Positions 33,645 to 61,673 of a stretch of 64,000 nucleotides of DNA are shown in pieces (positions within the stretch are counted from its first letter, which is position 1; every line of letters begins with the position of its first letter). Below the pieces are notes generated by a model. That model worked only from the letters and a program-made list of their open reading frames with translations, was not told the DNA's origin and did no database searches. Source of the DNA: Pseudonocardia sp. SCN 73-27. GTDB lineage: Bacteria; Actinomycetota; Actinomycetes; Mycobacteriales; Pseudonocardiaceae. The stretch is taken from the NCBI GenBank assembly GCA_001725415.1, contig MEGH01000099.1, positions 26,967 to 90,966 of the forward strand, given 5' to 3'. Position numbers and translations under genes: made by a program.

Positions 33645-33672
33645 TTGGGGAGTCGAACCCCAGACCTACGCA
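33645..33672 (-). repeat. tRNA-Thr 3'-end fragment, att-like copy 1
   Basis: 28 bp (TTGGGGAGTCGAACCCCAGA then CCTACGCA) identical to part of the copies at 38807 and 51696. On the minus strand this is a tRNA T-arm (GGGGTTCGACTCCCC) with its variable loop. The acceptor side (GCCCGAT) differs and no 5' tRNA half exists. It is likely an old attachment site at the left edge of block A. Confidence 0.65.
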
Positions 33673-33773
33673 CGAAGGGAATTGCGATCGGCGTGTTCAG
33701 GGTGCCCGCTGAGTCCATCGGCGCCAGTCACGGCGTCCCCCGTGAACACTGGTCACACCGGGCACCGCCGTTT

Positions 33774-33797
33774 CGTTCCACGATCCGTTCCACGGCA
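33774..33797 (+). repeat. Att-flanking paired repeat (CGTTCCACG type)
   Basis: CGTTCCACGATCCGTTCCACGGCA-type 24-bp unit: CGTTCCACG, two spacer bases, then CGTTCCACG-like. A near-identical unit (3 mismatches) lies at 51835, right of att copy 3. Candidate integrase arm site. The rest of 33574-33896 holds no gene. Confidence 0.5.
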
Positions 33798-33896
33798 AAG
33801 ATCGTTGTGCCGGTCGCTGAGACCCGCTCTACGGCACGATCCTCAGCCCGCCCCGAGGGCCCACCTCACAGGTCGTGACGGGCATGGGCGATCTCC

Positions 33897-35072
33897 TCAG
33901 TGACGGAGGCCTGCCTGCTTCAGCAGCGGTAGGGCGTTGTCGCCGAAGTAGTCGATCTCCTGGTTGTAGTCGAGCATTCCCATGATCATCCCGTCCATGC
34001 CGCCGATGTCGTGGATGCGCTGCATCTCCTCGACGACCTGCTCCGGGGTGCCGACGATCGGGTAGCCACCCCAGCCGGCGATGAAGCGCTCCTGGTAGGA
34101 CGCGAGCTGGGAGGCGAAGGACTCGCTCTGCATGCCGAGCACCTTCATGACGTTGTTCGCGCCGTCGCGGTCGCCCATGTCGACGATGTGCTGGAAGTCG
34201 CGCTTGGCCTCGTCCTCGGTGTCGCGACAGACGATCAGGCCATAGGTCATGGTCTGGATCTCACGCTGGTGGTCGTCGCGCGCCTTCGCCTTGAGCTGCG
34301 AGGTGTAACCGCTCATCGTCTCGACCGTGTCCATCGCGGCGAAGTTGACATCGACGTTGCGAGCGGAGAAGTCGATGCCCGACTTCGAGTTGCCTGCATT
34401 GATCAGCGCCGGCCGCGGGCCCTGGTAGGGCTTCGGATAGGACTCGACGTCGAGGCTGCTGAAGTCCTGGGTCACGAAGTCGAAGGAACCCTCCTCCGTC
34501 CAGAGCTTGTTCACGAAGTCGATCCACTGCTGGCCGTAGACGTAGCGCTGGTCGTGCTCGCGCTGCTCGGCGCCGAACATCTCCATCTCCGGGGTGAACC
34601 AACCCATGACGAGGTTGAGCCCGAAGCGACCGTGGGACACGTGATCGGCAGTCGTCGCCATCTTGGCCGCGACGATCGGGTGCAACGTCGGCAGGTGCGA
34701 GGTGGCGAAGATGCCGATGTTCTCCGTGAGCGCGGCCAGACCGGTCGCCCACGTATAGGTCTCGAAGCAGGTGCCGTTGAAGTTGGTGCTGCTGCCGAAG
34801 CCACGCCAACGGGCCACTGGCACGAGGGCCTCGAAGCCGAGCCGGTCGGCCTTCTGCGCGATCTCGAGCGTGTGCTCCCAGGTCGGCTCGTAGGTGGTCT
34901 CGGCGTGGCTTATCGTCAGCCCGTACGAGCAGTTGGTGCCGAACAGCCCGAGCTTGAGCGGCTGATCGTTGAAGATCGGGTGCGTGGTGCGCCCGTCGGC
35001 GACCGGCCTGCGTTGGCCGTCCGGCCGTGGAGTGGCGGGGACGAGACCCAGACGTTCTGCTGCGCTGCTCAC
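33897..35072 (-). CDS. LLM-class FMN-dependent monooxygenase (RutA/alkanesulfonate monooxygenase-like)
   Basis: 391 residues of the luciferase-like family, two-component FMNH2 type. LGLFGTNCSYGLTISHAE, VPVARWRGFGSSTNFNG, and FATSHLPTLHPIVAAKM with HVSHGRFGLNLVMGW are the conserved barrel motifs shared with RutA, SsuD and SfnG-like enzymes. These cleave C-N, C-S or C-halogen bonds with O2 and reduced flavin from a separate reductase, which is not encoded here. It is the last gene of the CoA-transferase/SDR/GlcG/LLM cluster in block A. Confidence 0.85.
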   Translation of the reverse strand: MSSAAERLGLVPATPRPDGQRRPVADGRTTHPIFNDQPLKLGLFGTNCSYGLTISHAETTYEPTWEHTLEIAQKADRLGFEALVPVARWRGFGSSTNFNGTCFETYTWATGLAALTENIGIFATSHLPTLHPIVAAKMATTADHVSHGRFGLNLVMGWFTPEMEMFGAEQREHDQRYVYGQQWIDFVNKLWTEEGSFDFVTQDFSSLDVESYPKPYQGPRPALINAGNSKSGIDFSARNVDVNFAAMDTVETMSGYTSQLKAKARDDHQREIQTMTYGLIVCRDTEDEAKRDFQHIVDMGDRDGANNVMKVLGMQSESFASQLASYQERFIAGWGGYPIVGTPEQVVEEMQRIHDIGGMDGMIMGMLDYNQEIDYFGDNALPLLKQAGLRH

Positions 35073-35096
35073 GGGGTTCTCCTCAGATGTCCGGAG

Positions 35097-35531
35097 TTAC
35101 TGGAGGCCGACGGCCTGCAACGCGCCCTGCGCGACGGCCATGTCGTCGGTGTAGTGACCGCCGCTGACGCCGATCGCGCCGACGACCTCACCGTCGACGA
35201 CGAGCGGGTAGCCGCCGCCGAAGGTCACCAGGCGGGCGGTGTGCGGGATCCCGATCCGCAACGGTTCGTCGTCCTTGATGAACTCGTGCCACTGGTCGGT
35301 CGGGATGCCGAACGCGACGGCCGTGTAGGCCTTGTCCTGCGAGATCTGCACCGACAGCAGCGGCGCGCCGTCCATCCGGACGAAGGCCTTGAGGGTGCCC
35401 TCCCTGTCGCACACCGTGATCACCATCGGCGTGCCGTTCCCGGTGGCCACCTCGGCCGCCCGTACGACGAGCTCCTGGGCGAACTCTGCGGTGATCGTCG
35501 AGACGCTGGCGGTCCTGGTCACATCGGTCAT
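35097..35531 (-). CDS. GlcG/HbpS-like protein
   Basis: 144 residues of the GlcG/HbpS fold (DUF336): AAEVATGNGTPMVITVCDREGTL, an AYTAVAFG segment and the C-terminal VTFGGGYPLVVDGEVVGAIGVSGG. Such proteins accompany many catabolic operons. HbpS-type members bind heme, others are of unknown role. It is cotranscribed with the LLM monooxygenase (24-bp gap) and SDR gene, so an accessory role in the same pathway is likely. Confidence 0.85.
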   Translation of the reverse strand: MTDVTRTASVSTITAEFAQELVVRAAEVATGNGTPMVITVCDREGTLKAFVRMDGAPLLSVQISQDKAYTAVAFGIPTDQWHEFIKDDEPLRIGIPHTARLVTFGGGYPLVVDGEVVGAIGVSGGHYTDDMAVAQGALQAVGLQ

Positions 35532-35559
35532 GTCACTGCTCCTCGGATGGGGAATCGGT

Positions 35560-36321
35560 TCATCGGACGGACCAGCCGCCGTCGATGGGGATCGCGGCGC
35601 CGGTCATGAACGTCGAGTCGTCGCTCGCGAGGTAGAGCGCGAGCGAGACGATCTCCTCGGAACGGCCGAGCCTGCCCACGAGGTGGCCGTCCTCGAAGCC
35701 CTGCCAGATCGCGTCCTTCTCAGCGAGCCCGCTGATGAAGTTGCGGGGCATCGGGGTGTCGACGACACCGGGGCAGATCGCGTTGACGCGGATCCCGTAG
35801 GGCGCGAGGTCGACTGCCGCGGCCTTGGAGAACATGGCGAGCCCGCCCTTGGCGGCGCCGTAGGCCGCCATGTTCTCGAACGCCACGAGCCCGCCGACGG
35901 ACGACACGTTGATGATCGAGCCGCCGTGCTCGAGCATCAGGGGGGCGATCTGCTTGGTGAGCAGGAAGACGCTCTTGAGGTCCACGTCGTGGACGAGGTC
36001 CCATTCCTGCTCGGTGGTCTCCAGCAGCGGCTTGCCCAGGATGATCCCGTGGTTGTTGTAGAGGACGTCCACCCGGTCGAACCGGGCGCCGACCTCGCCC
36101 GCGAACCGCTCGACCCCTGCCGATCCGACGAGGTCCGCGGTCACGAACGCGAAGTCGTGTCCCTTCCCGCGCAGTTCCTCCGCGAGCTGGGCACCGGCCT
36201 GCTCGTCGAGATCGGTGCCGAGCACCCGGCCGCCCTCCTCACAGAACAGGTGGCACGCGGCCTGCCCCTGCCCACCGGTGGCACCGGTGATGACGACGTT
36301 CTTGCCATCGAGCTTTCCCAT
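35560..36321 (-). CDS. Short-chain dehydrogenase/reductase (SDR)
   Basis: 253-residue classical SDR: cofactor loop TGATGGQG, NNHG in strand 4, catalytic Ser in INVSSVGG, and YGAAKGG (Tyr-x3-Lys). The DLDE acidic residue after strand 2 favours NAD(H) over NADP(H). It oxidises or reduces a hydroxyl/keto group of the block A pathway intermediate. It lies 12 bp downstream of the CoA-transferase gene. Confidence 0.9.
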   Translation of the reverse strand: MGKLDGKNVVITGATGGQGQAACHLFCEEGGRVLGTDLDEQAGAQLAEELRGKGHDFAFVTADLVGSAGVERFAGEVGARFDRVDVLYNNHGIILGKPLLETTEQEWDLVHDVDLKSVFLLTKQIAPLMLEHGGSIINVSSVGGLVAFENMAAYGAAKGGLAMFSKAAAVDLAPYGIRVNAICPGVVDTPMPRNFISGLAEKDAIWQGFEDGHLVGRLGRSEEIVSLALYLASDDSTFMTGAAIPIDGGWSVR

Positions 36322-36333
36322 CGGGACCTCTCC

Positions 36334-37242
36334 TCAGATGATTCCGCGCGCAGCCCACTGCTCGCGTCGTTCCCCGGCGACGCCGAGCAGGCCGCCGTAG
36401 ATCTCGTCGTTGTGCTCGCCGAGCTCCGGCCCCAGCCACCGGACCCCGCCCGGTGTGTCGGACAGCCGTGGCGCCACGTTCTGCATCGGGAACGAGCCGA
36501 GCCGGTCGTGCACGAGGCGGACGATCGCGTGCCTGGCCCGGAAGTGCGGGTCGTCGAGCATGTCGGCGGCGGTGTAGGTGAGGCCGGCAGGCACGCCGGC
36601 CTCGTGCAGCAGGCCCAGCAGGTCGTCGGCATCGAGCGTCCGGCTCCACCGGGCCAGCAGCGCCATCACCGTGCCGAGCGCGGCGAACGTCCCGGCGAGG
36701 GAGTCGCCCAGCGAGATCCCGGCGCGACTCGGGGCCCGGTCGGCCTCCCCGGTGACATGGCGGATCCCGCCCATCGCCTCGCCGATGGACCCGAACCCGG
36801 CCCGCGACGCGTACGGGCCCGTCTGCCCGTAGCCGGTGACCCTGGCGAGCACCAGCCCCGGGCCGCGGGTCGACAGCTCCGGATAGCCGAGTCCCCAGCG
36901 TTCCAGCGTCCCCGGGCGGAAGTTCTCCACCAGCACGTCCGCGGTCGCCACCAGATCACGCATGATCTGCTGGCCCTCCGCCGTCCGCAGGTTGCAGGTC
37001 ACCGACTTCTTGTTGCGCGCGATGATCGGCCACGACAGCGAGATGCCCTGCGGACGCGTGCTTCCCCACTGACGCATCGGGTCACCGCCGCGTGGGTCCT
37101 CCACCTTGATCACCTCGGCCCCGAAGTCGCCCAGCAGCTGGGCGCAGAACGGGCCGGCGATCAACGAGCCGCACTCCACCACCCGGACCCCGGCCAACGG
37201 GCCCGCTGCCCCGCCATCCGTCTGCTGCTCGTCAACCCGCAT
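36334..37242 (-). CDS. CaiB/BaiF (family III) CoA transferase, internally shortened
   Basis: 302 residues, against ~380-400 for the family. The N-terminal Rossmann part is intact: AGVRVVECGSLIAGPFCAQLLGDFGAEVIKVE, NKKSVTCNL, LVENFRPGTLERWGLGYPEL, and SRAGISLGDSLAGTFAALG with the catalytic Asp. The text then passes from ALGTVMALLARW directly to SRTLDADDLLGLLHEAGVPAG, normally ~100 residues later. The GHQ/VD-type middle domain is therefore missing in frame. The enzyme may be inactive. The ATG at 37242 is the first start matching the family. Confidence 0.78.
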   Translation of the reverse strand: MRVDEQQTDGGAAGPLAGVRVVECGSLIAGPFCAQLLGDFGAEVIKVEDPRGGDPMRQWGSTRPQGISLSWPIIARNKKSVTCNLRTAEGQQIMRDLVATADVLVENFRPGTLERWGLGYPELSTRGPGLVLARVTGYGQTGPYASRAGFGSIGEAMGGIRHVTGEADRAPSRAGISLGDSLAGTFAALGTVMALLARWSRTLDADDLLGLLHEAGVPAGLTYTAADMLDDPHFRARHAIVRLVHDRLGSFPMQNVAPRLSDTPGGVRWLGPELGEHNDEIYGGLLGVAGERREQWAARGII

Positions 37243-37443
37243 GCAGGAGAGCCTGCGGCGCACACCCCGGGACCGCGTATCCCCGAAACGCACGTCCCGG
37301 TGTCACCACGCGCACGCCCGCCGGGGATGTCCGCTGCACGCACCGGTCATGTCCGGGAAACGCACGCGCGGCCCGGCAGCAGTGCTCCGGTGCTAGCGTC
37401 GGCCGGACCGCCACCAGGTCGGGGACGACGGAGTCCGGTCACG

Positions 37444-38514
37444 ATGACACAGCAGGCAGAAGCGATCCCGGGAACTGACCCGGCGCCGATCCGCGAGGCA
37501 CACGACCTCGCCGAGGCCAGGCACCACATCACCACGGTCTACATCCCCCACGAGCTGACCTCGCACGACAGCCGGCCGCTGGACTTCAGGCTGGCCTACC
37601 TCCACTCGCGGCAGCTCACCCTCGGGCACGTGCGCTACGGAGCCGACGTCGAGCTCCTCTGCCCACCCATGCGCTCCTGCTACCACGTCAACCTCACGCT
37701 GGCCGGCAGCACGCAGGTGCGCCAAGGCAAGCGCTCGGCGGCCACCGACGGCGGCCGCGGTGGAGCGGCGTTCGGCTTCACCGAGCCCTACCTCGTACGG
37801 TGGAACCCGGACGCGGTGCAGTACGCGATCAAGATCCCCCGGACCGCCATGGAGAGTCAGCTCGCGGCCCTCGCAGGCCGACCGGTCGACGCGCCCATCC
37901 GGTTCGACCTGGGTTTCGACCTGAGCTCTGCGCACGGGCAGAGCCTGCTCGCCGCGGTGCGCCACCTGCAGGCCGAGCTCGCGCGACCGGGCGGCACGGC
38001 CGAGCTCCCCCTCGTCCGGGCGCAGCTGGAGTCCTACGTCATCAGCCAGATGCTGCTGGTGATCCCGCACGACCGCCAGGACCTGCTCACGACCACCGGC
38101 CGAGCGGCAGGCCGCACCCACGTCCGCATCGCGATGGAGTATGCCGACGAGCACGCCGCCGAGCCGATCACGGCACCCGACCTGGCCCGGGCCGCGTGCG
38201 TGAGCATGCGGGCGCTGCAGGTCGGATTCCGCGACGAACTCGGGGTGTCGCCGGGCACCTACATCCGCAACGTGCGCCTTGATCGGGCTCGTCAGGACCT
38301 GCTCGCCCGCACCGAAGGTGTGCCGATCAGTGAGATCGCCCACCGCTGGGGGTTTCACCACCTGGGCCGCTTCGCAGAGCACTACCGGCGCCGGTTCGGC
38401 TGCCTGCCGTCCGACACCATCGTCACCGAGAAGACTGCCCGGTCATCGGTCGAACTCGGTCGGGTCGTGCGACCGAGGGCCGGACGGGAACCCGACCACT
38501 CGTTCGTTCCATGA
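37444..38514 (+). CDS. AraC-family transcriptional regulator
   Basis: 356 residues. The N-terminal AraC-binding-like domain (LTLGHVRYGADVELLCPPMRS, YHVNLTLAG) precedes the C-terminal double HTH (LARAACVSMRALQVGFRDELG; ISEIAHRWGFHHLGRFAEHYRRRFG). It is divergent from the CoA transferase-LLM cluster across a 201-bp gap and is the only regulator in block A, so it most likely activates that cluster. The end of this gene lies ~115 bp from the arm-type repeats next to att copy 2. Confidence 0.87.
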   Translation: MTQQAEAIPGTDPAPIREAHDLAEARHHITTVYIPHELTSHDSRPLDFRLAYLHSRQLTLGHVRYGADVELLCPPMRSCYHVNLTLAGSTQVRQGKRSAATDGGRGGAAFGFTEPYLVRWNPDAVQYAIKIPRTAMESQLAALAGRPVDAPIRFDLGFDLSSAHGQSLLAAVRHLQAELARPGGTAELPLVRAQLESYVISQMLLVIPHDRQDLLTTTGRAAGRTHVRIAMEYADEHAAEPITAPDLARAACVSMRALQVGFRDELGVSPGTYIRNVRLDRARQDLLARTEGVPISEIAHRWGFHHLGRFAEHYRRRFGCLPSDTIVTEKTARSSVELGRVVRPRAGREPDHSFVP

Positions 38515-38628
38515 AAACCGGGTGTGACCTGCGCGAACAAGAGCCACAGTCTCCACGCACCGTGCCGTGCGGATTTCAAGATCGCTCTACAGGAGCTGAC
38601 CTGCGGAGACCGAGACAGGTAACCAGAT

Positions 38629-38650
38629 GGAGGCCACGAAGGAGGCCACG
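38629..38650 (+). repeat. Direct repeat pair GGAGGCCACG, left of att copy 2
   Basis: GGAGGCCACG occurs twice with a 2-nt spacer. The same 10-mer recurs right of att copy 2 and twice left of att copy 3. Candidate integrase/excisionase arm site. Confidence 0.55.
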
Positions 38651-38665
38651 GCGCGGCCTCCTGGT

Positions 38666-38760
38666 TCACCAGATCGTCTCGACGACACCGGTGGCGGTGA
38701 TGGCCCGATCCTTGGTCACCAGCGGCACGCCCAGATGCGAACGACGTCGATGCCGACGAT
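38666..38760 (-). pseudogene. VapC/PIN-domain toxin C-terminal remnant
   Basis: The minus strand ends with SHLGVPLVTKDRAITATGV-VETIW followed by a stop, the standard C-terminus of VapC-type PIN ribonuclease toxins (VPLVTKDR motif with the last acidic residue). No N-terminal part or antitoxin is present. It is debris between the arm repeats and att copy 2, consistent with past element traffic. I see no other gene in 38515-39499. Confidence 0.6.
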
Positions 38761-38806
38761 CAACCTCTGGAACGACCAAAGGCCCCTCAACGGGCCTCTG
38801 ACCGGC

Positions 38807-38852
38807 GGAGCCGCCTTGGGGAGTCGAACCCCAGACCTACGCATTACGAGAA
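38807..38852 (-). repeat. tRNA-Thr(CGT) 3' half, att-like copy 2
   Basis: A 46-bp stretch identical to 51696-51741. Read on the minus strand it runs from the anticodon loop (CTCGTAA, anticodon CGT) through the T-arm (TGGGGTTCGACTCCCCA) to the acceptor strand AGGCGGC. The matching 5' half (D-arm and 5' anticodon strand) is absent, so this is not a tRNA gene. It is a typical tyrosine-integrase attachment core at the boundary of blocks A and B. Confidence 0.8.
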
Positions 38853-38944
38853 TTTCCGTCGCCGGGAACACTATGGTCGTCGATGGCATCTGCGCAGTTC
38901 AGAGGCTCGTGGCTGTGCATGATTGGATTCACAGGAATCAGGTA

Positions 38945-38965
38945 GAGGCCACGAAGGAGGCCACG
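38945..38965 (+). repeat. Direct repeat pair GAGGCCACG, right of att copy 2
   Basis: GAGGCCACG-AAG-GAGGCCACG lies 93 bp inside block B from the att core, in the same orientation as the pair on the other side of the core. Confidence 0.55.
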
Positions 38966-39499
38966 CCGCTCGGCACAGCGTGTCGAAGTGGAGGCCCCTG
39001 AGCCAGGGTAGTCGGAGCTGATCGGCGCCTGAGCGCGCGGACTACTTGCCTCGGCGATGCGCCGGCCGTCTCGGCCTTCGCGCTCCGACTGACAGGCTTG
39101 AGCTACGCGGCCGCGGCGGGTCCAGGAGCGTCCACGACCCATCACTGACGAAATTGATACCCGTCTGAGCTGGACGAACGCCGATGACTGGCCCAGACTC
39201 CCCCCACCGACACACAGCCCGACCGCCTGTGCTGGGGAGCGAACGGCGGTTTCCCTGCGGCCGGGGTCGTCGTCTGGGGGACATCGGCCCTGGCTGCTCC
39301 CGTGTCCTCAGGAGCACCGCCGCAGCGGCACCCGACCACACCGGCGACGGCCATCGCCGCGCCTGCGCCCCATCGCGCTTGCGTTCAGCCGGGTGGTAGT
39401 CGCGTCAGGATCTTCGAGACATATCCGAGCCCCGTTGCTAGCGTCGGCCGTCACCGCCCGCGCGTTCACGTCGCAGGCCCTGTGCGACAGGTGGACCAC

Positions 39500-40165
39500 G
39501 TGTCACATGCGCTGCCCACAAAGCCCGCCGATCGCGGTGACCCTCCCGAGGACTGGGTCCCGGTCGAACGTCGGTGGCTGGGTCTGGACCGCCGCAGCCT
39601 GCCGGCCGGGATCACCGTTGCGGTCATCGCGATCCTGTTCACAGCCGTCCTCCCGTTCCTCAACGACTCGATCTCGTGGAACAACCCGATCGTGGCCGGG
39701 GACCGCATCGCACTCGGCCCCCAGGCCGTCGTGACCCCGCCGCTCGGCTGGCAACTCGTCAACGGTGTACGGGTCGGCGAGCAGACGACCGCCGGAGCCG
39801 CAGCTGTCCTGACCGACGCGGGTGTGACGATGAACCTGGCCGTCGAAGCGCTCCCGGACGGCGTCGACATGCTGCTGACCACGATCACCGGCGACATCAG
39901 CCGCTCCGCCCAGGGCACGGGACTGCGGGCCGACAGCACCGCGGTCCACCTCACCACTGCCGGCGGCCTCACCGCCGCCGTTCAACGCTGGAGCTCACCC
40001 TCGACATCAGGGGTCGTCGCCGTGATCGCCGATCCACCGGCGGACGGGTCCGGGAGCCCGACCGCCGTCGTCATCCAGGCCTCGGGGCCCGGGTCCGCCC
40101 TCGACACGGTGATCGCCGACGTCGACCGGACCATCCGCGGTGTGACCCGAGGGGGGAACCGATGA
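39500..40165 (+). CDS. Single-pass membrane protein of unknown function
   Basis: About 221 residues with one membrane segment near residues 35-55 (AGITVAVIAILFTAVLPFL) after a charged cytosolic N-terminus. The rest is an extracytoplasmic domain rich in Thr/Ala (ALGPQAVVTPPLGWQLVNG). No family recognised. The GTG at 39500 follows AGGTGG; GTGs at 39491 and 39482 are also possible. The stop overlaps the PrsW start (ATGA), so it could be a partner or substrate of that membrane protease (inference). Confidence 0.65.
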   Translation: MSHALPTKPADRGDPPEDWVPVERRWLGLDRRSLPAGITVAVIAILFTAVLPFLNDSISWNNPIVAGDRIALGPQAVVTPPLGWQLVNGVRVGEQTTAGAAAVLTDAGVTMNLAVEALPDGVDMLLTTITGDISRSAQGTGLRADSTAVHLTTAGGLTAAVQRWSSPSTSGVVAVIADPPADGSGSPTAVVIQASGPGSALDTVIADVDRTIRGVTRGGNR

Positions 40166-41352
40166 GCGAGTCCGTGGTCACCCCGCTCACCCCGAACGGC
40201 CCGTCGGGCGAGGCCATGGACCGTCGCTTCCTCGCGATCCGCGAGTCCGGCTGGGGAACCCCGTTCCGGCTGGTCCAGCCCCGCAACCTGTGCTTCTGGA
40301 TCGTCCTGTGGGGCCTGGCCGCGGGCGCCGTGCACATGGTCCAGTACCTCGTGCCGGCCGCGGGCCAGTACAGCGTCGCGCTCGGCAGCGGCGTGCTGCT
40401 CTTCGGCATCTACACGGTGCCGTGGCTGTTTCTGCTGCACTACCACAACCGCTACACCTCGATCCCGGGCCGACCGCTCGTCCTGGCCTTCGCCTGGTCG
40501 TTCGTGGCGGGCACCTTCTGGATGGGCCTGCAGGTCAACGCCGCGGTCCTGTCGTTGTACGGCAAGGCGTTCGGGCCGGCGTTCGTGCGGGACTGGGCCG
40601 CAGGGCTCACCGCCCCGATCACCGAGGAGATCATCAAGGCGACGGCCCTCGTGCTCGTCATCGGGCTGGCGCCCCGCCTGGTCAGCAGCGCCTATGCCGG
40701 CCTGATCATCGGCGCCTACTCCGGGCTGGGACTTCAGATCGCCGAGGACCTCATCTACGTCGTCAACGGCGCTGCAGGGGCGCACGGCACCAACCAGGTC
40801 GGCGCTGCCGTCAGCACGCTGCTCAACCGCGGCTACGTGGGACTTTTCCAGCACGTGCTGTTCAGCGCCGTGTACTGCGCGGGGCTCGTCTGGCTGCTGG
40901 GCCGCGGCGGTCGGCACCGGGCGCGCGGGGCGCTGCTGGTCCTCGCCGTGATCGTCCTGCACTTCTGCTGGGACGACGCCGCCTCGCTCGGGACCGCCGT
41001 CGCCGGGCCTCTCGGCCCCCTCGCACTGCTCTGGGTCGTCCTCCCGATCGTCGGTCTGCTCCTGCTCTGGCTCACCTTCCGCCTCGCCGCGCCACGCGAG
41101 CAGGCCTGGATGCGCGACCTGCTGCGCCCCGAGGTCGAGCGCGGAATCATCAGCGAGGCAGAGCTCGTCGCAGTCAGCGGCGGGTTCCGCGCCCGCCGCC
41201 ATCACCTGCGTCAGGCCGAGCACCGGCGCGCCGAGAAGCACGTCCTGCACGCCATCGCTGACTTCGCAGGCGAACTCGCCCGCGGACGTGGCCGCGAGAC
41301 CGACCGGATCGACCATGCCCGGGCAGAGATCCTCCGCCTCCGCGCGGTATAG
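40162..41352 (+). CDS. PrsW-family intramembrane protease
   Basis: 396 residues with ~8-9 TM segments. The PrsW (glutamic-type CAAX-like) signatures are present in order: EEIIKA (EExxK), GLQIAEDLIYVVN (xxxED), an FQHVLFS His segment, and VLHFCWDDA (His motif). PrsW proteases cut anti-sigma factors or other membrane proteins within the bilayer. The C-terminal ~90 residues are a cytosolic, Arg-rich helix region. Coupled to the upstream single-TM protein gene. Confidence 0.82.
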   Translation: MSESVVTPLTPNGPSGEAMDRRFLAIRESGWGTPFRLVQPRNLCFWIVLWGLAAGAVHMVQYLVPAAGQYSVALGSGVLLFGIYTVPWLFLLHYHNRYTSIPGRPLVLAFAWSFVAGTFWMGLQVNAAVLSLYGKAFGPAFVRDWAAGLTAPITEEIIKATALVLVIGLAPRLVSSAYAGLIIGAYSGLGLQIAEDLIYVVNGAAGAHGTNQVGAAVSTLLNRGYVGLFQHVLFSAVYCAGLVWLLGRGGRHRARGALLVLAVIVLHFCWDDAASLGTAVAGPLGPLALLWVVLPIVGLLLLWLTFRLAAPREQAWMRDLLRPEVERGIISEAELVAVSGGFRARRHHLRQAEHRRAEKHVLHAIADFAGELARGRGRETDRIDHARAEILRLRAV

Positions 41353-41444
41353 GCACCGGCGTCCGTCGTGCACCATCGGCGCGGGCGCTGCGGTGCTGTC
41401 GCTGCTGCGGCCCAGCGCGATCGGTATTCGACTGAGAGCAGAGG

Positions 41445-42731: not shown

Positions 42732-42835
42732 GCTCGGTCCTCGTCCCGCTCGTCGCCTGATCGGGCCGTTCATCTCGTCGCCACGCGACGAACGTGTTGT
42801 GTCGCTACGTTCGTCGGACCGACTCACTCGTGGGG

Positions 42836-45175: not shown

Positions 45176-46197
45176 CCCGCGTCCTCGTCGTCAACGCCGG
45201 GTCCTCCTCCCTGAAGCTGCGGCTCCTCGGCCCCGACGACACCGTGGAGCGGACGGCCGAGGACCTGGCCGAGGTGCGCGACTGGCCCACACCGGACGCG
45301 GTCGGGCACCGGATCGTGCACGGCGGCATCCGGTTCACCGATCCCGTCGTCGTGGACCGGGATGTGCGGGCGGCACTCGACGAGCTCACCGCGCTGGCCC
45401 CGCTGCACCAGCCCAAGTCTCTCGACGGGCTCGACGCCGTGTCCGCGCAGTATCCGGACGTTCCCGCGGTGGCCTGCTTCGACACGGCCTTCCATGCCGC
45501 GATCCCCGACGCCGCGGCGACCTACGCGGTCCCCGCGCAGTGGCGCGAGCGGTACGCCATCCGCCGCTACGGTTTCCACGGCCTCTCCCACGCCGGGTGC
45601 GCGCGGCAGGTCGCCGACCTGACCGGGGCACGGCGGATCGTCACGGCCCACCTCGGCGCGGGTGCGTCGCTGTGTGCCGTGCTCGACGGCCGCAGCGTCG
45701 ACACCACGATGGGCTTCACCCCGCTGGAGGGGCTGGTCATGGCCACCCGCTCCGGCAGCGTCGACCCGGGTCTCGTGCTGTGGCTGACCGAGCACGAAGG
45801 GCTCTCGCCGCACGAGGTCGCCGAGACCCTGGAGAAGAAGTCGGGCCTGCTCGCCCTCGCCGGCACCGCCGACCTGCGGGAGGTCGACGCGGACTCCCTC
45901 GCCATGCAGGTCTACGTCCACCGGATCGCCGCCGGCGTTGCCGCGATGGCGGCCTCGGCGGGTGGGCTGGAGGCGCTGGCCTTCACCGGCGGCGTCGGCG
46001 AGAACTCCACGGTCGTGCGCGCGAAGGTCGCCGAGCGGCTCGCGTTCCTCGGGGTGGCGGTGGACGACCCCGGCACGACCGACGGCGAGATCACTGCCCG
46101 GGGCGCGGCGGTACGGGTGCTGGTCGTCCCCGCACGGGAGGACCTCGAGATCGCCCGCGGCACCCGGAACGCCCTGCAGCGCCACGGCACCGGATGA
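45172..46197 (+). CDS. ackA: Acetate kinase
   Basis: 341 residues, shorter than the usual ~400 because the N-terminal domain lacks an ~50-residue insertion. The catalytic pieces are present: [14 protein letters not shown] (Asn and phosphate loop), GHRIVHGG (Arg), ACFDTAFHA (Asp), [10 protein letters not shown] (His), [19 protein letters not shown] and a C-terminal [10 protein letters not shown] (Glu). Makes ATP from acetyl-P produced by the preceding phosphoketolase. Start GTG within the phosphoketolase stop. Stop overlaps the AspT start. Confidence 0.9.
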
Positions 46198-47921
46198 TGG
46201 ACTGGTTCTCCCGCGCCCTCGTCGGGCACTCCGAGATCGCGGTGCTGCTCGCCGTCGGCCTCGGTTTCGCGCTCGGCCGGCTGCGCTACCGGTCGATCTC
46301 CCTCGGCGCCGTCACCGGCACCCTGATCGTCGGGGTGGTGCTCGGAGCACTGGTCACGGTGCACCGCCCCGACGGCACGGTGGCGACACTGTCGGTGGAC
46401 GGGCCGGCCAAGAACATCTTCTTCCTGCTGTTCCTGTTCGCGCTCGGGATCCGTCTCGGTCCCCAGTTCGTCGCCGGCCTCAGGGGAACCGGTGCGCCCC
46501 AAGCGGTGTTCGCCGTCGTCCTGGCGTTGGTGGGCTTCGGCGTGGTCCTGGTCGTCGCGGCGGTGACCGGGCTGAACCCGGGGCTGGCCGCGGGGATCGC
46601 CGGCGGCGGGCTCACCCAGTCCGCGATCGTCGGCGTCGCGCAGGGCTCCATCGCCGGCCTGGCGCAGGACCCCGCCACACTGAAGGAGTGGAGCGACCTG
46701 GTCCCGGTCGCCTACGCCGTCACCTACCTCTTCGGGACGATCGGCACCGCCCTGTACTGCGCGAACGTCGCGCCTCGGCTGCTCGGGATCACCGACCTCC
46801 CCGCCGCCGCGGCCGCGCTGGAGCGTCGGCTCGGGCTCGCCCGGACCTCCCCGGACGTCCAGACCGCCTACCTCGACATCACCCGCCGCGCCTACCGGCT
46901 CACCACCCTGCCGCCCGACGTCACCACCGCCGCCGATCTCGAGCAGCACCTGCGCTCGGGCGACCACCACGTCTTCGTCGCCCGGATCCGCACCGACGCC
47001 GGCCCGGCCGACGCGACCCCCGCCACCCCGCTCGCACCCGGATGTTCGGTGGTGCTCACCGCGCGCCGGATCGACCTGTTCGCCGCGTCGCTCGCGGGCG
47101 TCGCCGAAGAGGTCGACGACCCCGAGCTGTTGGGCTTCGCGATCGAGGACCTGTGGGTCGTCGTCAGCGCCCGGGGCGCCACCGGGCGAACCGTCGGACA
47201 GCTCCGCGCCGACCCGGGATTCCGCCGCATCTATCTGCGCGGGCTCCGCCGCAGCGGCCACGACCTCCCGGTCGGCGACGCCGTCACCCTCCACTCCGGC
47301 GACGAGGTCCGGCTACAGGGGCCGTTGCCCCTGCTGGAGTCGGTGATCCCGCTGGTCGGACACGCCGAACGGGCGAGGGTCGAGTCGAGCATGGTCGTCC
47401 TCGGCCTCGGGATCGCCGCGGGTGCGCTGATCGGCGTCCCCGCGCTGCGCGCCGGCGGCATTCCCGTCGGGCTCTCGACGAGCGTCGGCGCCCTGCTCGT
47501 CGGGCTGCTCGTCGGCTGGTATCGCACCCGTCGCCCCCTGCTGGCCCGGATCCCGCCCGCCGCGGACTGGTTCCTCGAGTCCGCCGGACTCGCGTTCTTC
47601 ATCGCCATGGTCGGCATATCCGCCGGGCCGTCGTTCGTCTCCGGGCTCACCCGCTACGGCGTCGGCATCCTGCTGGCCGGCGTCGTGGTCACGCTGGTGC
47701 CGCTCGTGGTGATGACCCTGCTCGCGCGCTGGGTGTTCCGCTTCGACCCGGTCGTCGCCCTCGGCGTCCTCGCCGGCTCCCGCTCGTCCTCACCGGCCGC
47801 AGGCGCCCTGCGGGACGCCTCGCGCAGCTCGGTCCCCATGCTCGGTTACACCGTCCCCTACGCGGTGGCCAACATCGTCCTGACCGTCGGCGGCGCCGTC
47901 GTCGTCGCCCTGACCGCCTGA
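46194..47921 (+). CDS. aspT: Aspartate:alanine antiporter (AspT/AAEx family)
   Basis: 575 residues with two five-TM blocks (residues ~10-185 and ~395-575) separated by a soluble ~200-residue region with two TrkA-C-like domains: the AspT/YidE/YbjL duplication architecture. IAGGGLTQSAIVGVAQG and GSRSSSPAAGALRDASRSSVPMLGYTVPYA are the conserved pore loops of each half. AspT exchanges external Asp for internal Ala. Directly upstream of AsdA (15-bp gap), so the specific assignment is well supported by context. Confidence 0.88.
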   Translation: MMDWFSRALVGHSEIAVLLAVGLGFALGRLRYRSISLGAVTGTLIVGVVLGALVTVHRPDGTVATLSVDGPAKNIFFLLFLFALGIRLGPQFVAGLRGTGAPQAVFAVVLALVGFGVVLVVAAVTGLNPGLAAGIAGGGLTQSAIVGVAQGSIAGLAQDPATLKEWSDLVPVAYAVTYLFGTIGTALYCANVAPRLLGITDLPAAAAALERRLGLARTSPDVQTAYLDITRRAYRLTTLPPDVTTAADLEQHLRSGDHHVFVARIRTDAGPADATPATPLAPGCSVVLTARRIDLFAASLAGVAEEVDDPELLGFAIEDLWVVVSARGATGRTVGQLRADPGFRRIYLRGLRRSGHDLPVGDAVTLHSGDEVRLQGPLPLLESVIPLVGHAERARVESSMVVLGLGIAAGALIGVPALRAGGIPVGLSTSVGALLVGLLVGWYRTRRPLLARIPPAADWFLESAGLAFFIAMVGISAGPSFVSGLTRYGVGILLAGVVVTLVPLVVMTLLARWVFRFDPVVALGVLAGSRSSSPAAGALRDASRSSVPMLGYTVPYAVANIVLTVGGAVVVALTA

Positions 47922-47935
47922 ACGGGGACACGTCC

Positions 47936-49543
47936 ATGACCGAGCTCAGCCGCGCCGACATCCGCGCGCTGCAGACCCTCTCCCCGTTCGAGCTGAAGGA
48001 GAAGCTGCGCGAGATCGCCGGCGAACACGAGGGCCGCACCGCGTTCCAGCAGCTCAACGCCGGCCGCGGCAACCCAAACTTCATCGCGCCCACGCCCCGC
48101 GAGGCGTTCTTCCGGCTCGGGTTCTTCGCCCTCGAGGAATGCCGGGCCACCGTGACCTGGGACCCCGAGCTCGTCGGTGTCCCGCAGAAGGACGGCATCG
48201 CCGCCCGGTTCCGCGACTGGCTCGACACGCACACCGGCGAGAGCGGCGTCGACCTCCTGCGCCGTGTCCTCGACCTCGGTGTCGACGAGTACGGCTACGA
48301 CCCCGACGCGTTCGTCTGGGAGTTCGCCGACGCCGTCATCGGCGACCACTACCCGGCGCCGGACCGGATGCTGCGCCACGCCGAGGACGTCGTGCGCCGC
48401 TACCTCCACCAGGAGATGGGTGCCGGGATCGGCCCCGTCGACCTGTTCGCCGTCGAGGGCGGGACCGCCGCGATCTGCTACATCCTGGACACGCTCGTGA
48501 CGAACCGGCTTCTCCAGCGGGGTGATCGCGTCGCCGTCATGACCCCGATCTTCACCCCGTACCTGGAGATCGCCCACCTCTCCGAGTACGGCTTCGACGT
48601 CGTCCGCATCCACGCCGAGCCCGACACGTGGCAGTACCCGGACGCGGAGATCGACCGGTTGCGCGACCGTTCCGTCAAGGCTCTGCTCTGCGTGAACCCC
48701 ACGAACCCGCCGTCGGTGTCCGTCGCCACCAGCGCCCTCGAACGCATCGCCGGCATCGTCGCCGAGGACAACCCCGACCTCGTCGTCGTCACCGACGACG
48801 TCTACGCCACGTTCATCGACGGCTTCACCTCGCTCGCCGCCCTCATCCCGCGCAACACCGTGCTCGTCTACTCGTTCTCGAAGTACTTCGGCGCGACCGG
48901 CTGGCGCCTCGGCGTCGTCGGCGTCTCGCCGGACACGGTCCTCGACGAGCTCATCGCCCGGCTGCCCGAACAGGACGGACAAGCCCTCGACGCCCGCTAC
49001 GCCACACTCAGCCTCACTCCACGCGACATCAAGTTCGTCGACCGCCTCGTCGCCGACTCCCGCGACGTCGCCCTCAACCACACCGCAGGCCTGTCGCAAC
49101 CCCAGCAGCTGCAGATGCTGCTGTTCGCCGCCTACTGCCTCCTCGACGACACCGACCACTACAAGCAGCAGGCACAGGCGCTCATCCGCCGCCGGCTCGG
49201 CGACCTGCTCGACGGCATGCGGATCACGCTGCCCGAGGACCCGCAGCGCGTCGGCTACTACGTCGAGCTCGACCTGCTCGGCTACGCCCGCCGCCACTAC
49301 GGACCCGAGTTCGTCGCGTTCCTGCAAGCCAACTACGAACCCACCGACATTCTCTTCCGGCTCGCCGACCAGACCGGCGTGATCGCCCTCAACGGCGGCG
49401 GATTCGACGCACCGCTCTGGTCGATCCGGCTGTCCATCGCCAACCTGCGCGACCACCAGTACGCCGAGATCGGCCGCGCCGTCCGCACGGTGGCCGAGGA
49501 GTACCTCACCGAGTGGCGGGCGAGGACAGGCGTCGACGATTGA
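47936..49543 (+). CDS. asdA: Aspartate 4-decarboxylase (bifunctional aminotransferase/decarboxylase)
   Basis: 535 residues, fold-type I PLP enzyme longer than plain aspartate aminotransferases, as typical for AsdA. AFQQLNAGRGNPNFIAPTPR at the N-terminus, VEGGTAAICYILD, NPTNPPSVS, TDDVYATF, and SFSKYFGATGWRLG with the PLP Lys316 are visible. It converts L-Asp to L-Ala and CO2, consuming a cytosolic proton. With AspT this yields a proton-motive metabolic cycle. Forms one operon with the phosphoketolase, acetate kinase and AspT genes. Confidence 0.92.
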   Translation: MTELSRADIRALQTLSPFELKEKLREIAGEHEGRTAFQQLNAGRGNPNFIAPTPREAFFRLGFFALEECRATVTWDPELVGVPQKDGIAARFRDWLDTHTGESGVDLLRRVLDLGVDEYGYDPDAFVWEFADAVIGDHYPAPDRMLRHAEDVVRRYLHQEMGAGIGPVDLFAVEGGTAAICYILDTLVTNRLLQRGDRVAVMTPIFTPYLEIAHLSEYGFDVVRIHAEPDTWQYPDAEIDRLRDRSVKALLCVNPTNPPSVSVATSALERIAGIVAEDNPDLVVVTDDVYATFIDGFTSLAALIPRNTVLVYSFSKYFGATGWRLGVVGVSPDTVLDELIARLPEQDGQALDARYATLSLTPRDIKFVDRLVADSRDVALNHTAGLSQPQQLQMLLFAAYCLLDDTDHYKQQAQALIRRRLGDLLDGMRITLPEDPQRVGYYVELDLLGYARRHYGPEFVAFLQANYEPTDILFRLADQTGVIALNGGGFDAPLWSIRLSIANLRDHQYAEIGRAVRTVAEEYLTEWRARTGVDD

Positions 49544-49617
49544 CCGGCTTCGTACGATCATCCGGAAGCTGCCGGCAACTCCACGCGACGACTGCCTCGT
49601 CGCTCGATCCGAAGCGA

Positions 49618-50052
49618 GTGTCGATGACCGTTCCCCGAGCGCACCGGCCGGGCAGTGTCACCCTCGTCGTCGTCCTGACGTGGATATCGGCGCTTCTGTC
49701 GAGCCTGTGGGGACTCATCATCCTGCTGCTGTCCCCCGCCACGGGCAGCCTCGCCTACGGCCGGGCCTACTTCGTGGTGGGGGTGGTGCTACTGGTCTTC
49801 GGCCTGATCACCGCAGCGGTCGCCTCCCGGCTGGGCAAGGGCGGCAACGGTGCCAGGATGCTCGTCTCCGCGCTCCAGGTGTTGCAGATCGCCGGAGCGA
49901 TCGCCGGGATCGCCACCGCCGGAGGCACGTCCACCGTCGGTCAATCCGTCCTCACGATCGTCCTCGCCTTCGCCATCCTCGGCCTGCTGTGGAACAGCCG
50001 GGCCAACGCCTTCTTCGCCGCCGCCCCGCAGGACCGCACTACGCAGAGGTAG
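49618..50052 (+). CDS. Small four-TM membrane protein
   Basis: About 142-144 residues (ATG 49624 or GTG 49618). Four hydrophobic segments (SVTLVVVLTWISALLSSLWGL; AYFVVGVVLLVFGLITAAV; VLQIAGAIAGIA; SVLTIVLAFAILGLLW) and a polar tail. No family recognised; it resembles small actinobacterial DUF-type membrane proteins. It sits after AsdA with a 74-bp gap. Any link to the energy operon is unproven. Confidence 0.65.
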   Translation: MSMTVPRAHRPGSVTLVVVLTWISALLSSLWGLIILLLSPATGSLAYGRAYFVVGVVLLVFGLITAAVASRLGKGGNGARMLVSALQVLQIAGAIAGIATAGGTSTVGQSVLTIVLAFAILGLLWNSRANAFFAAAPQDRTTQR

Positions 50053-50237
50053 TCACACGCTCACAGCGCTGGGCGCCGAGGATCGGACAGCAGCGCCTTC
50101 GGGCCCGGCGACACCTCGACGAGGTCGTGTCGGCGCTTCGTGATCGGGTCGACGCCCGCGAAGAGCGTCCGCGTCACACCTTGTGCCACGTCACCGGCAG
50201 CCGCTGGGAACGGCTGTACGTTTCAGCTGTTCAGCGG

Positions 50238-50282
50238 TGGTGGAGACGAGGGGAATCGAACCCCTAACCCCGCCTTGCAAAG
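50238..50282 (-). repeat. 3' half of a second, different tRNA (anticodon-loop TTTGCAA)
   Basis: On the minus strand: an anticodon-loop-like TTTGCAA (would be TGC, Ala), a variable loop, T-arm AGGGGTTCGATTCCCCT, acceptor CGTCTCC, then A-CCA. The 5' half does not follow at higher coordinates, so it is not a full tRNA. It is most likely an att fragment left by an element targeting another tRNA. No partner copy is seen. The tRNA identity is uncertain. Nothing else is seen in 50053-50318. Confidence 0.6.
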
Positions 50283-50318
50283 GAAATCGGTCATGTGACG
50301 TGCGTTGTACTTGCCCGG

Positions 50319-50933
50319 TCAGAGCAACCCGGCGGTCCGCTTCTTGCCTGAGATGCCTCCGGACGCGAACACTTCATTGCCATGGACAGCGCCATCGCGT
50401 CCATACTGGACAGTCATGTAGGCCACTCGGGGACATAATCTCCGCCGAGCGCCGCACTCGGCGGGGCCCGCTGCACGCGTAGGACCGGCATTCCGGGCCG
50501 CATCGTCCCCGGCTGGGGTCGAGGTGACAGCCCTTGAACCGCACGACACCCCCATTCCGGGCAGCTGGCTGGTCGGCCGCGGGCGAGTCGGCGGCTGCGG
50601 GGCTGATCGCTGCCGCGGCGGCGACTGCCCGGCCGCGTGCTGCTGCGCCAGCATCGCGACGAACGCGGCTCGGTGCTCGGGCTCGACCAGCTGGGCCCAG
50701 CCAGCGTGCATCCGTGGCACGGTCTCGCCCGGCCACTGGGAGTAGAACGGCGGGCTCAGTGGTAGTGGTGGCGCGGCGCCCCTGCCCCGAGCGTCTCGAA
50801 CATCCATCGCGAACGCCCAACCCAGCCAGATGAAGATGCCGATGACCCCGACGCCGATCAGGCCCATCACTACCGAGACGGTCGTCGGCTGCGTGAACAT
50901 CTGGACGATGAACGCGACGGCGAAGACCAACAC
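50319..50933 (-). CDS. Mobile-element small membrane protein, 3' end uncertain
   Basis: The reading frame starts at a GTG overlapping the previous small gene's end and encodes two membrane segments (VLVFAVAFIVQMF; VSVVMGLIGVGVIGIFIWLGWAFAM). A conserved-looking GWAQLVEPEHRAAFVAMLAQQHAAG helix and a Pro/Gln-rich stretch follow. Beyond about 50560 the frame looks non-coding and passes through a terminator-like hairpin at 50442-50464, so the true stop may have been lost by frameshift. It belongs with the small genes at 50939-51339, a set seen in actinomycete integrative elements. Confidence 0.5.
   Translation of the reverse strand: MLVFAVAFIVQMFTQPTTVSVVMGLIGVGVIGIFIWLGWAFAMDVRDARGRGAAPPLPLSPPFYSQWPGETVPRMHAGWAQLVEPEHRAAFVAMLAQQHAAGQSPPRQRSAPQPPTRPRPTSQLPGMGVSCGSRAVTSTPAGDDAARNAGPTRAAGPAECGARRRLCPRVAYMTVQYGRDGAVHGNEVFASGGISGKKRTAGLL
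50442..50464 (-). terminator. Hairpin terminator of the mobile-element small-gene operon
   Basis: Perfect 8-bp stem CCGCCGAG/CTCGGCGG with a 7-nt loop. It falls inside the overlong 3' end of the preceding reading frame. Confidence 0.5.
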
Positions 50934-50938
50934 GCAGA

Positions 50939-51055
50939 TCAGGTGAGCACCGCGCTTGCGGGCGTCATGGGCTTGGCGGGCCGCTCGCGTCCGCCGCCGA
51001 TCGGGGCGCTGTAGCTGAACGGCCCCGGCAGCGGGATGTTGACTCGAAACGGCAC
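50939..51055 (-). CDS. Very small mobile-element protein
   Basis: 38 residues from a GTG: VPFRVNIPLPGPFSYSAPIG then a basic, Pro-rich tail ending SAVLT. It lies between two other small element genes, 5 bp from the downstream GTG. The N-terminal pattern (PFRV-LPGPF-YS-PIG) looks like a conserved short protein of actinomycete integrative elements; this is from memory. Function unknown. Confidence 0.4.
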   Translation of the reverse strand: MPFRVNIPLPGPFSYSAPIGGGRERPAKPMTPASAVLT

Positions 51056-51117
51056 GTCGGATCGTTCGGACAGGCAGGGACGCTCGTTACACCGCGGCGG
51101 CTTCGGGGCGACGCCGG

Positions 51118-51339
51118 TCAGGGTGACGACGACGGCGTGGTGTCGCGGGCCGCCCACAGCAGCCGCACGAGCGGCGCCACCGTCGGCACGCCCCACCCGG
51201 CCAGTCACTCGATCGCGGCCGGCTGCCGGGCCGATACGTCGATACCGTCGAAGGGCTCCAGTAGCGCGGTCACCTTGTCGAGGTGCACAGCCCGCTCCCA
51301 CGCGTGCGGCTCGCGGTCACGGAGGTGGTCGAACCGCAC
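51118..51339 (-). pseudogene. Small mobile-element gene with internal TGA
   Basis: The GTG at 51339 has AGGAGG 5 nt upstream and encodes RFDHLRDREPHAWERAVHL, DKVTALLEPFDGIDVSARQP and AAIE, then TGA at 51205-51207. The same frame continues LAGWGVPTVAPLVRLLWAARD to a proper stop at 51118. A single TGG-to-TGA change at a Trp position (IE-W-LAGWG) explains it. Without it the protein would be 73 residues. No function can be assigned beyond element-associated. Confidence 0.6.
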
Positions 51340-51587
51340 CGCAGCCTCCTACGGCACCGCCACCATCGCCGACATGGGCACCATCACCCTTACCTGGCAG
51401 TACTAGTTGCCCACGACGCCGGCGCAGGGGCGACCGTGACGGACAGCGCCTCGGTGCCCGGCCAAGACCGTTCAGTGCCGATCGGCACCATGGGCATGAT
51501 TGTGCAGCAGTGGCGGGCGTCTTCGTACACCAGAGACGCCTGCCCACTCCTGCCTGCCGTGCACGTAGTGACGAACGCACACCACGA

Positions 51588-51641
51588 GGAGGCCACGCCA
51601 CACCGGCCTGACCAACGCAAATCTTCCAGAAGGAGGCCACG
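51588..51641 (+). repeat. Two GGAGGCCACG direct repeats, left of att copy 3
   Basis: GGAGGCCACG at 51588-51597 and 51632-51641, same orientation as those around att copy 2, ending 55 bp from the att core. The region 51340-51695 has no gene that I can support. Confidence 0.55.
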
Positions 51642-51695
51642 CCCCAGAGAGGTTCGCGACCAAGACGCCGACATAACGCCCTGACCTGCGAAAAT

Positions 51696-51741
51696 GGAGC
51701 CGCCTTGGGGAGTCGAACCCCAGACCTACGCATTACGAGAA
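51696..51741 (-). repeat. tRNA-Thr(CGT) 3' half, att-like copy 3
   Basis: Identical over 46 bp to 38807-38852. Reads on the minus strand from the CTCGTAA anticodon loop to AGGCGGC-TCC, here followed by A (complete CCA). The 5' tRNA half is missing. It marks the right end of block B and the left end of the next element, whose other end is not seen in the window. Confidence 0.8.
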
Positions 51742-51805
51742 AATGTGTCGTTAGCTACATGAAGCCCATGTCGTCCATCGGTGCACGTCAGCGAGTTCAG
51801 CGTGC

Positions 51806-52189
51806 TCAGGATGCTCCGCCACACAGCCACATTTCGTGCCACGACCCGTGCCACGGCAGGGTCGCCAGAACATCTTCCGGCCCGCGCGCCAGGCCCTCGC
51901 CGCCGATGAACACCTCGGGCAACGTGCTCCCGACCTCACGAGCGGCGTCGGCGTGGCGCCAGCGCATCGCGGCGAAGTGCCCCAGCTTCAGACCCGCACC
52001 AGTCCCCGAGCCGGCGCCGAGCACGATCACCGCGGCTGGCACCTCGGGGTGCCGCGCCTGAATCGCCGCTCACGCGCCCTCCAGCGCGGCGACCATTGGT
52101 GAGCTGATCCCGGGCGTTGACCTCGTCGTGTCAGTGGTCGTGTCACCGATCGCGTCGATGCCGGTGGTGGTGTTGTCGAGTGCGGTCAT
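51806..52189 (-). pseudogene. Mobile-element protein, nonsense-mutated and truncated
   Basis: The ATG at 52189 (GGAGG upstream) encodes MTALDNTTTGIDAIGDTTTD, then ISSPMVAALEGA, then TGA at 52070. The same frame continues AAIQARHPEVPAAVIVLGAG SGTG, LKLGHFAAMRWRH and VFIGGEGLARGPEDVLATL, a pattern I associate with conserved actinomycete element proteins. The TGA replaces an expected Trp codon. The 3' end is lost where sequence enters the CGTGCCACG repeats near 51860, before the HE-type motif. Confidence 0.6.
51835..51858 (+). repeat. Att-flanking paired repeat (CGTGCCACG type)
   Basis: 24-bp unit with CGTGCCACG twice. It differs by 3 bases from the unit at 33774, and both lie 94-102 bp right of their att core. 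It truncates the element gene on the minus strand. Confidence 0.5.
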
Positions 52190-53924: not shown

Positions 53925-53947
53925 CAGAGTCTCCTCGAATTGGCGGG

Positions 53948-55431: not shown

Positions 55432-55497
55432 GCGCCTATCTTCACGCTTGTCGAAACACATCCACAACCCATGATCGAGTGATGTGGACAACGCTCG

Positions 55498-58175: not shown

Positions 58176-58191
58176 GCTCGATCCTCCCGCC

Positions 58192-59616: not shown

Positions 59617-59625
59617 ACTGGCGGC

Positions 59626-61529: not shown

Positions 61530-61673
61530 TTGACAGCAGCCTGCATTCATCGTCGAACCCTAGGTTTTCGAACCGAAGCAGCGGAGACCCGTTGTGGCGC
61601 GAGACCCGCGCCGTCTGGCGAGGCCGCACCCCGGTAAGCGGCCCAAGTGCATAGAGGGAACTGAGGGAACTAG

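What the first reader, a model, noticed from the sequence alone, without database searches (positions are those of the whole stretch)
33645..51741. Three tRNA-Thr 3'-half copies frame tandem cargo blocks without integrases
The 3' half of a tRNA-Thr(CGT)-like gene, cut at the anticodon loop, occurs at 33645 (28 bp), 38807 and 51696 (46 bp identical). Each lacks the tRNA 5' half. The blocks between them are cargo-like: A (5.2 kb, LLM/GlcG/SDR/CoA-transferase/AraC) and B (12.9 kb, phosphoketolase to AsdA). The arsenic island follows the third copy. No integrase, relaxase or Rep gene is visible. Established: many tyrosine integrases use tRNA 3' ends, and accreted elements lacking integrases (CIMEs) are known. 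Inference: these are stacked, trans-mobilisable metabolic cassettes. By orientation, the intact tRNA should lie to the right of the window.
Basis: partly seen in the sequence, partly recalled or inferred. Interest (0 to 1): 0.85.

Follow-up and report, generated by a model that had tools for sequence, protein, structure and literature searches.

The report
Integrase-less gene cassettes stacked at tRNA-Thr
In a soil bacterium of the genus Pseudonocardia, blocks of genes that lack their own insertion enzyme sit in a row beside one tRNA gene, and a near-identical block of this kind sits at the same spot in two divergent species, which suggests that such blocks travel with machinery borrowed from another element.

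Summary
Observation confirmed. Three same-strand tRNA-Thr(CGT) 3' halves lie at 33645, 38807 and 51696. Synteny in relative G017 supports placing C83 to the right; the contig gap remains.

Block B is a clear integrase-less element: repeats GGAGGCCACG stand at fixed distances inside both ends (+128/+140 and -117/-73 from the core). The layout recurs in other Pseudonocardia around unrelated cargo. A search for the right-end signature alone also found it in another genus, beside a tRNA-Thr half. Of 27 att-bounded segments, 18 lack an integrase. A 10.15-kb integrase-less Wadjet cassette is 93.6% identical in two species whose DNA beyond the tRNA is 76-78% identical. Cassette ends mostly differ from integrase-bearing ends.

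Corrections: block A's ends are degenerate or altered, and a possible remnant of a further element lies between A and B. The arsenic block probably belongs to the INT element. INT's own end repeats (CGTGCCACG) differ from B's, so action of the resident integrase on B is unproven. Filed as a CIME-like variant with distinctive ends.

The parts
33645..33672 (-). tRNA-Thr(CGT) 3'-half core, leftmost copy (28 bp), left boundary of block A
   Evidence: exact core match; 3 mismatches in the G017 counterpart
33774..33794 (+). degenerate C-flavour repeat pair (+129/+141) inside the left end of block A
33673..38607 (.). block A: luciferase-like monooxygenase, HbpS/GlcG-like, SDR, CoA-transferase III, AraC-type regulator; no integrase
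   Evidence: shared with G017 at 93% and 90% DNA identity in two stretches
38608..38815 (.). altered A/B boundary: GGAGGCCACG pair at 38629 and 38641, then (38765-38850) an integrase-type right end with core; possible remnant of a further, gutted element
   Evidence: 94% identity over 87 bp to the INT-element right end of G025; pair matches element left ends over 30-35 bp at 91-97% but also that right end over 23 bp at 100%
38807..38852 (-). tRNA-Thr 3' half, second copy; left att of block B
38944..38965 (+). B-flavour repeat pair (+128/+140) inside the left end of block B
38853..51695 (.). block B cassette: PrsW-like, DUF2254, phosphoketolase, acetate kinase, AspT-like, aminotransferase; no integrase
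51588..51641 (+). B-flavour repeats 44 nt apart (51588 and 51632; -117/-73) with a CTGACC motif between, inside the right end of block B
51696..51741 (-). tRNA-Thr 3' half, third copy; boundary of B and C
51835..51855 (+). C-flavour repeat pair CGTGCCACG (+130/+142) inside the left end of element C
51742..64000 (.). left part of element C (arsenic-type genes, transporter genes); inferred to continue on contig C83 to INT and the intact tRNA-Thr
   Evidence: left end 93.75% identical over 176 bp to G023; INT at L009:5933-7333; C-flavour pair at -80/-68 beside the intact tRNA

Best explanation
The region is a tandem accretion at the 3' end of tRNA-Thr(CGT). The tRNA-proximal element C (arsenic-type genes, 466-aa tyrosine integrase INT, CGTGCCACG repeats at both ends) is an integrase-bearing element. 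Blocks B and, more eroded, A are integrase-less cassettes bounded by tRNA 3' halves. B's two ends together make a complete attP-like layout: core plus arm-type repeats at fixed spacing. Shown: cores, repeats, spacing, no integrase detected, recurrence with different cargo, and one such cassette (not B) shared at high identity by two divergent species at the same tRNA. Inferred: the repeats are integrase arm sites; movement was catalysed by an INT-family integrase of matching flavour supplied by another element, in trans or by co-transfer followed by loss of the helper; for B the helper may be the element whose remnant lies at 38608-38815.
For: Fixed spacing: 24 of 36 half copies have a repeat at +126..+143 on the element side, 0 of 47 intact tRNAs at that place on the host side, shuffled mean 0.35, maximum 3. 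18 of 27 att-bounded segments have no integrase and all 18 were read in full; the profile used found 18 of 18 PF00589 test loci. Same-strand copies on 21 of 21 contigs with several. G017/G005 cassette 93.6% over 10,151 bp against 76-78% in three long stretches beyond the tRNA; bulk of it in 2 of 62 genomes, plus its right 2 kb in G031. Signature search over 390 genomes: 12 hit, 9 of them at a tRNA-Thr copy, one of these in another genus. A conjugation-type relaxase and coupling protein in the related INT element of G041.
Against: No circle or excision was observed. INT's repeats are C flavour, B's are B flavour. G013, G027 and G051 carry cassettes at the tRNA, yet their best listed INT relatives match at 59-61% over about half the protein and lie elsewhere (list cut). 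No match of more than about 3.5 kb to B was found in the other 61 genomes, although 53 of 62 genomes matched some part of A+B, mostly paralogous genes (four candidates scored per genome). XFP and AckA relatives at 95% and 91% lie in G044 on a contig without a core copy. The C99-C83 link is inferred.
Confidence: 0.68

Rival explanations
1. Ordinary CIMEs: each cassette is an independently decayed integrase element that lost int and transfer genes, kept its att sites and is stranded; it moves, if at all, only by co-transfer with a neighbour.
For: This is the textbook route (PMC5704250 passages). Integrase-type right ends without an integrase exist: G056 and the left copy of G109, and the remnant at 38608-38815.
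Against: Right ends of integrase-less cassettes mostly have another layout: 20 of 21 rows without integrase lack the 12-nt pair, 11 of 14 rows with one have it. The cassette layout recurs with unrelated cargo, and one cassette changed species.
Confidence: 0.45
2. Homologous recombination: cassettes spread by host recombination between the roughly 200 bp of shared end sequence, with no integrase at work today.
For: Ends share long similar stretches, e.g. 89-98% over 43-87 bp around the core; inner exchanges between G017, G031 and G013 look like mosaicism.
Against: High identity in the G017/G005 pair stops near the tRNA, and the repeats keep exact spacing.
Confidence: 0.2
3. Assembly artefact or chance repeats.
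For: The genome is a 99-contig draft.
Against: No chance matches in 100 shuffles; G017 shows the left part on a long contig; 21 of 21 multi-copy contigs are same-strand.
Confidence: 0.01

Closest known systems
CIMEs (cis-mobilizable elements)
   Same: Elements without integration and transfer genes that keep attL and attR and stack beside ICEs or IMEs (definition seen in PMC5704250 passages).
   Different: Here integrase-less ends mostly have a layout of their own, repeated around unrelated cargo, and one cassette is shared by two divergent species.
ssrA genomic islands of Dehalococcoides
   Same: Tandem islands at one RNA gene; 16 with and 15 without an integration module, the latter proposed as cis-mobilizable (PMC3146451, passages and section 10).
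   Different: Serine recombinase and tmRNA gene there; tyrosine integrase, tRNA-Thr and spaced repeats here.
pSE211-type AICEs
   Same: Actinobacterial integrases using a tRNA-Thr gene (PMC3218068 passage).
   Different: Relation of INT to the pSE211 integrase was not tested. The G041 INT element has a TrwC-type relaxase and a TraG/TraD-type coupling protein.

Membership tests
CIME | no integrase of its own | tested here: met
   block B: no tyrosine integrase by profile and no recombinase Pfam hit among the ORFs scanned; serine recombinases only covered by those scans
CIME | no transfer genes | tested here: met
   no relaxase or conjugation family among the B ORFs scanned; an oriT was not looked for
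CIME | retains attL and attR | tested here: met
   46-bp cores at both ends plus spaced repeats
CIME | arose by decay of an ICE or IME | tested here: inconclusive
   right-end layout differs from integrase-bearing ends in most rows, with exceptions
CIME | demonstrated mobilisation | not testable with these tools
   needs an experiment; indirect support from G017/G005
IME | encodes its own integrase (blocks A, B) | tested here: not met
ICE or AICE (element C) | integrase plus transfer genes | tested here: inconclusive
   integrase present on C83; no transfer gene among the ORFs scanned, but C is incomplete; relaxase and coupling protein in the related G041 element

The most novel reading that the evidence does not exclude
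A dedicated class of integrase-less multi-gene cassettes (metabolic operons, Wadjet and TOTE systems), in at least two genera of one actinobacterial family, has its own attP design (repeats near -117, -73, +128, +140; CTGACC-type motifs near -98 and -25, and inverted near +77). They spread as true satellites by using INT-family integrases of conjugative elements in trans: a chromosomal cassette system with a tRNA gene as its entry port.
Probability: 0.33. Interest if true: 0.82.

Novelty: new variant of a known kind. Interest (0 to 1): 0.62.

Why it matters
Integrase-less islands are usually read as debris. Here their ends keep regular spacing, recur with unrelated cargo including defence systems, and one such cassette appears to have changed species. 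That makes the question whether CIME-like cassettes are satellites with ends of their own directly testable, and gives a sequence signature (two GGAGGCCACG 44 nt apart beside a tRNA 3' half) by which they can be found without an integrase.

Tried and rejected
Tried without yield: an intact tRNA inside the window (none); Rfam families at gathering threshold (none); an integrase in A or B (none); an att copy at the left edge of the 97%-identical block near 17876 (none with up to 8 mismatches); a viral-contig relative of INT (7 stretches matched a pattern, none confirmed); a close plasmid-borne INT (60 records, all under 60% identity, none covering 80% of INT). A shared left-flank gene was seen in 4 of 12 genomes compared (G037, G047, G056, G059), but no clean fully empty site was shown. 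Literature searches listed no paper on integrase-less cassettes at tRNA-Thr in Pseudonocardia; only the listed best papers of an open-licence library were seen.

Limits: the integrase profile was grown from INT and its relatives. Match lists were cut. The 83 copies include duplicates (L094 is the genome of L147; L098 is near-identical to L077). The value p = 0.00055 for 4 integrase-bearing against 12 integrase-less two-end-armed segments treats related ends as independent, counts own element C by hand across two contigs, and rests in some rows (G007, G028) on single one-mismatch repeats that could be chance. Element C's DNA was never searched across the genus.

Full report
What was checked. 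The 28-bp core occurs three times in the window on one strand; none is expected by chance. It occurs four times in the 6.95-Mb genome with up to 3 mismatches. The fourth copy is the intact tRNA-Thr(CGT) at C83:7373-7448. Beside its 3' end, in the same direction, lies a 466-aa tyrosine integrase (INT, PF00589). The window ends where contig C99 ends. Two facts support the order C99 to C83. First, G017 carries M10 peptidase, half copy, block A, half copy, another block, intact tRNA, SnoaL-like gene and further right-flank genes on one contig. Second, both ends of element C have homologues in G023: 176 bp at 93.75% for the left end, and INT at 94% for the right. G023 showed no DNA match to the M10 gene beyond the core, and none to A or B beyond one 76% and one 69% stretch in the first, monooxygenase gene of A.

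Genus picture. Of 60 genomes searched (own included), 48 have a core match; on 21 of 21 contigs with more than one copy all copies share a strand. In the loci fetched, 83 copies were found, 47 intact and 36 halves, with a few duplicate genomes among them. Between neighbouring copies I could delimit 27 segments: 9 hold an integrase, 18 do not, and all 18 were read in full; four of the nine were read only in part. The integrase profile found 18 of 18 PF00589 test loci. PF00589 has 10 matches in this genome, none on C99.

Ends. Just inside the ends stand short direct repeats of two flavours, GGAGGCCACG (B) and CGTGCCACG (C), at fixed distances from the core. At element left ends a repeat lies at +126 to +143 in 24 of 36 half copies, against 0 of 47 at that place on the host side of intact tRNAs; shuffled sequences gave a mean of 0.35 and a maximum of 3. 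At right ends, integrase-bearing elements mostly have a 12-nt-spaced pair near -81/-69, and integrase-less ones single or 44-nt-spaced repeats (-117/-73, or one near -63 to -73). Over all right ends with a repeat: 11 rows with integrase and pair, 3 with integrase but no pair, 1 pair without integrase (G056), 20 neither. Duplicates are among the 11. Of the 3, L079 is an integrase fragment outside the segment, and L052 has an integrase whose ends look like another type (my reading). A further pair without integrase is at the left copy of G109. The exact 12-nt pair GGAGGCCACGNNGGAGGCCACG occurs 12 times in 62 genomes. Nine lie within 200 bp of a tRNA-Thr copy, one (G084) beside its INT gene, one (G001) about 1 kb away, one (G036:C445) has no copy seen on its contig. 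The 15 one-mismatch hits include several far from any copy seen; the reversed control matched once. That the repeats are integrase arm sites is inferred from position (recalled from other tyrosine-integrase attP sites).

This genome. Element C has C-flavour pairs at both ends and INT, so it is coherent. Block B has B-flavour repeats at +128/+140 and -117/-73 and no integrase. Block A has C-like repeats at its left end; in G017 its right end also has one, at -73, but here 38608-38807 does not match G017. That stretch holds a B-flavour pair and, about 110 bp on, an integrase-type right end 94% identical over 87 bp to that of the P. autotrophica-type element in G025. I read it as a gutted B-flavour element, a possible former helper of B. 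The pair resembles element left ends over 30-35 bp (91-97%), but also the G025 right end over 23 bp (100%), so a displaced right end is not excluded.

Do such cassettes move? The integrase-less block at the tRNA in G017 carries Wadjet JetA, JetC and JetD (PADLOC) and a Schlafen/AlbA_2-DUF5635 gene. Its bulk occurs in 2 of 62 genomes, and its right 2 kb in a third, G031. In G005 it sits at the same tRNA, 93.6% identical over 10,151 bp, while three long stretches beyond the tRNA are 76-78% identical. The G005 contig ends just short of the expected left att; a one-mismatch left repeat pair is there. G013 and G052 share 2.2 kb of cassette DNA at 88% against 77% in core; G013/G031 and G017/G031 share 1.4 and 2.15 kb at 92% against 75-78%. 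Other integrase-less segments hold a citrate synthase/isocitrate dehydrogenase set (G027), an FAD monooxygenase (G051), an AMP-binding enzyme set (G039), a TOTE primase-helicase (G031) and PRiA4_ORF3 genes (G013, G052).

Signature test. Two GGAGGCCACG 44 nt apart (no tRNA letters, one mismatch allowed) hit 12 of 390 genomes of the family; the reversed control hit 4. Eight are Pseudonocardia, each at a tRNA-Thr copy, with a CTGAC or CTGAG motif between the repeats. These eight were among the genomes that suggested the signature, so they test its specificity only. One is from another genus (G109), 118 nt from a tRNA-Thr half whose core equals that of the Actinomycetospora locus L099. There, between two halves 5.1 kb apart, repeats lie at +129/+141 and -118/-74 and no integrase is found. 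The other three (G141, G324, G337) had no core nearby and look like chance.

Against. INT's flavour is not B's. G013, G027 and G051 list only partial INT relatives at 59-61% (list cut). In the A+B search 53 of 62 genomes matched, mainly through single genes or gene pairs elsewhere; B as a unit was not seen again. XFP and AckA relatives at 95% and 91% lie off-site in G044. A was seen as a block only in G017 and may be fixed. No circle was seen.

Compared with print. CIMEs (PMC5704250, passages) and integrase-less ssrA islands (PMC3146451, passages and section 10) cover the kind; pSE211-type integrases use a tRNA-Thr gene in actinobacteria (PMC3218068, passages). What differs is the mostly consistent cassette-specific end layout and the cassette without integrase in two divergent species. 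Verdict: new variant of a known kind.

Noticed in passing
window 17876-33641: A 15.8-kb block left of A is 97.3% identical to G017, against 88-90% further left and 83-89% on the right flank. No att copy at its left edge.
   Followed up: partly
L043:6611-8395, L136:6674-8458, L066:9138-10919: The same 594-aa Schlafen/AlbA_2-DUF5635 gene (95-96% identical) lies at the tRNA-proximal end of three integrase-less cassettes with different cargo.
   Followed up: partly
L045, L047, L048, L051, L052, L078, L144: Other integrase types at the same tRNA-Thr seem to have their own end repeats (GCGGACCA-like, CATGCC-like), read by eye.
   Followed up: no
L009:1979-7333: INT is followed by a conserved set (APH-family kinase fold, 498-aa protein without Pfam hit, WhiB-like) that recurs beside INT in G023, G037, G041 and G044.
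   Followed up: no
window 42794-46197 and G000:C2:20676-24052: Block B's phosphoketolase/acetate kinase pair is a second copy in this genome; the other is 81% identical at DNA level.
   Followed up: no
L059:7890-13974: In G049 a related arsenic gene set (transporter 86%) lies directly beside that genome's own tRNA-Thr half copy.
   Followed up: no
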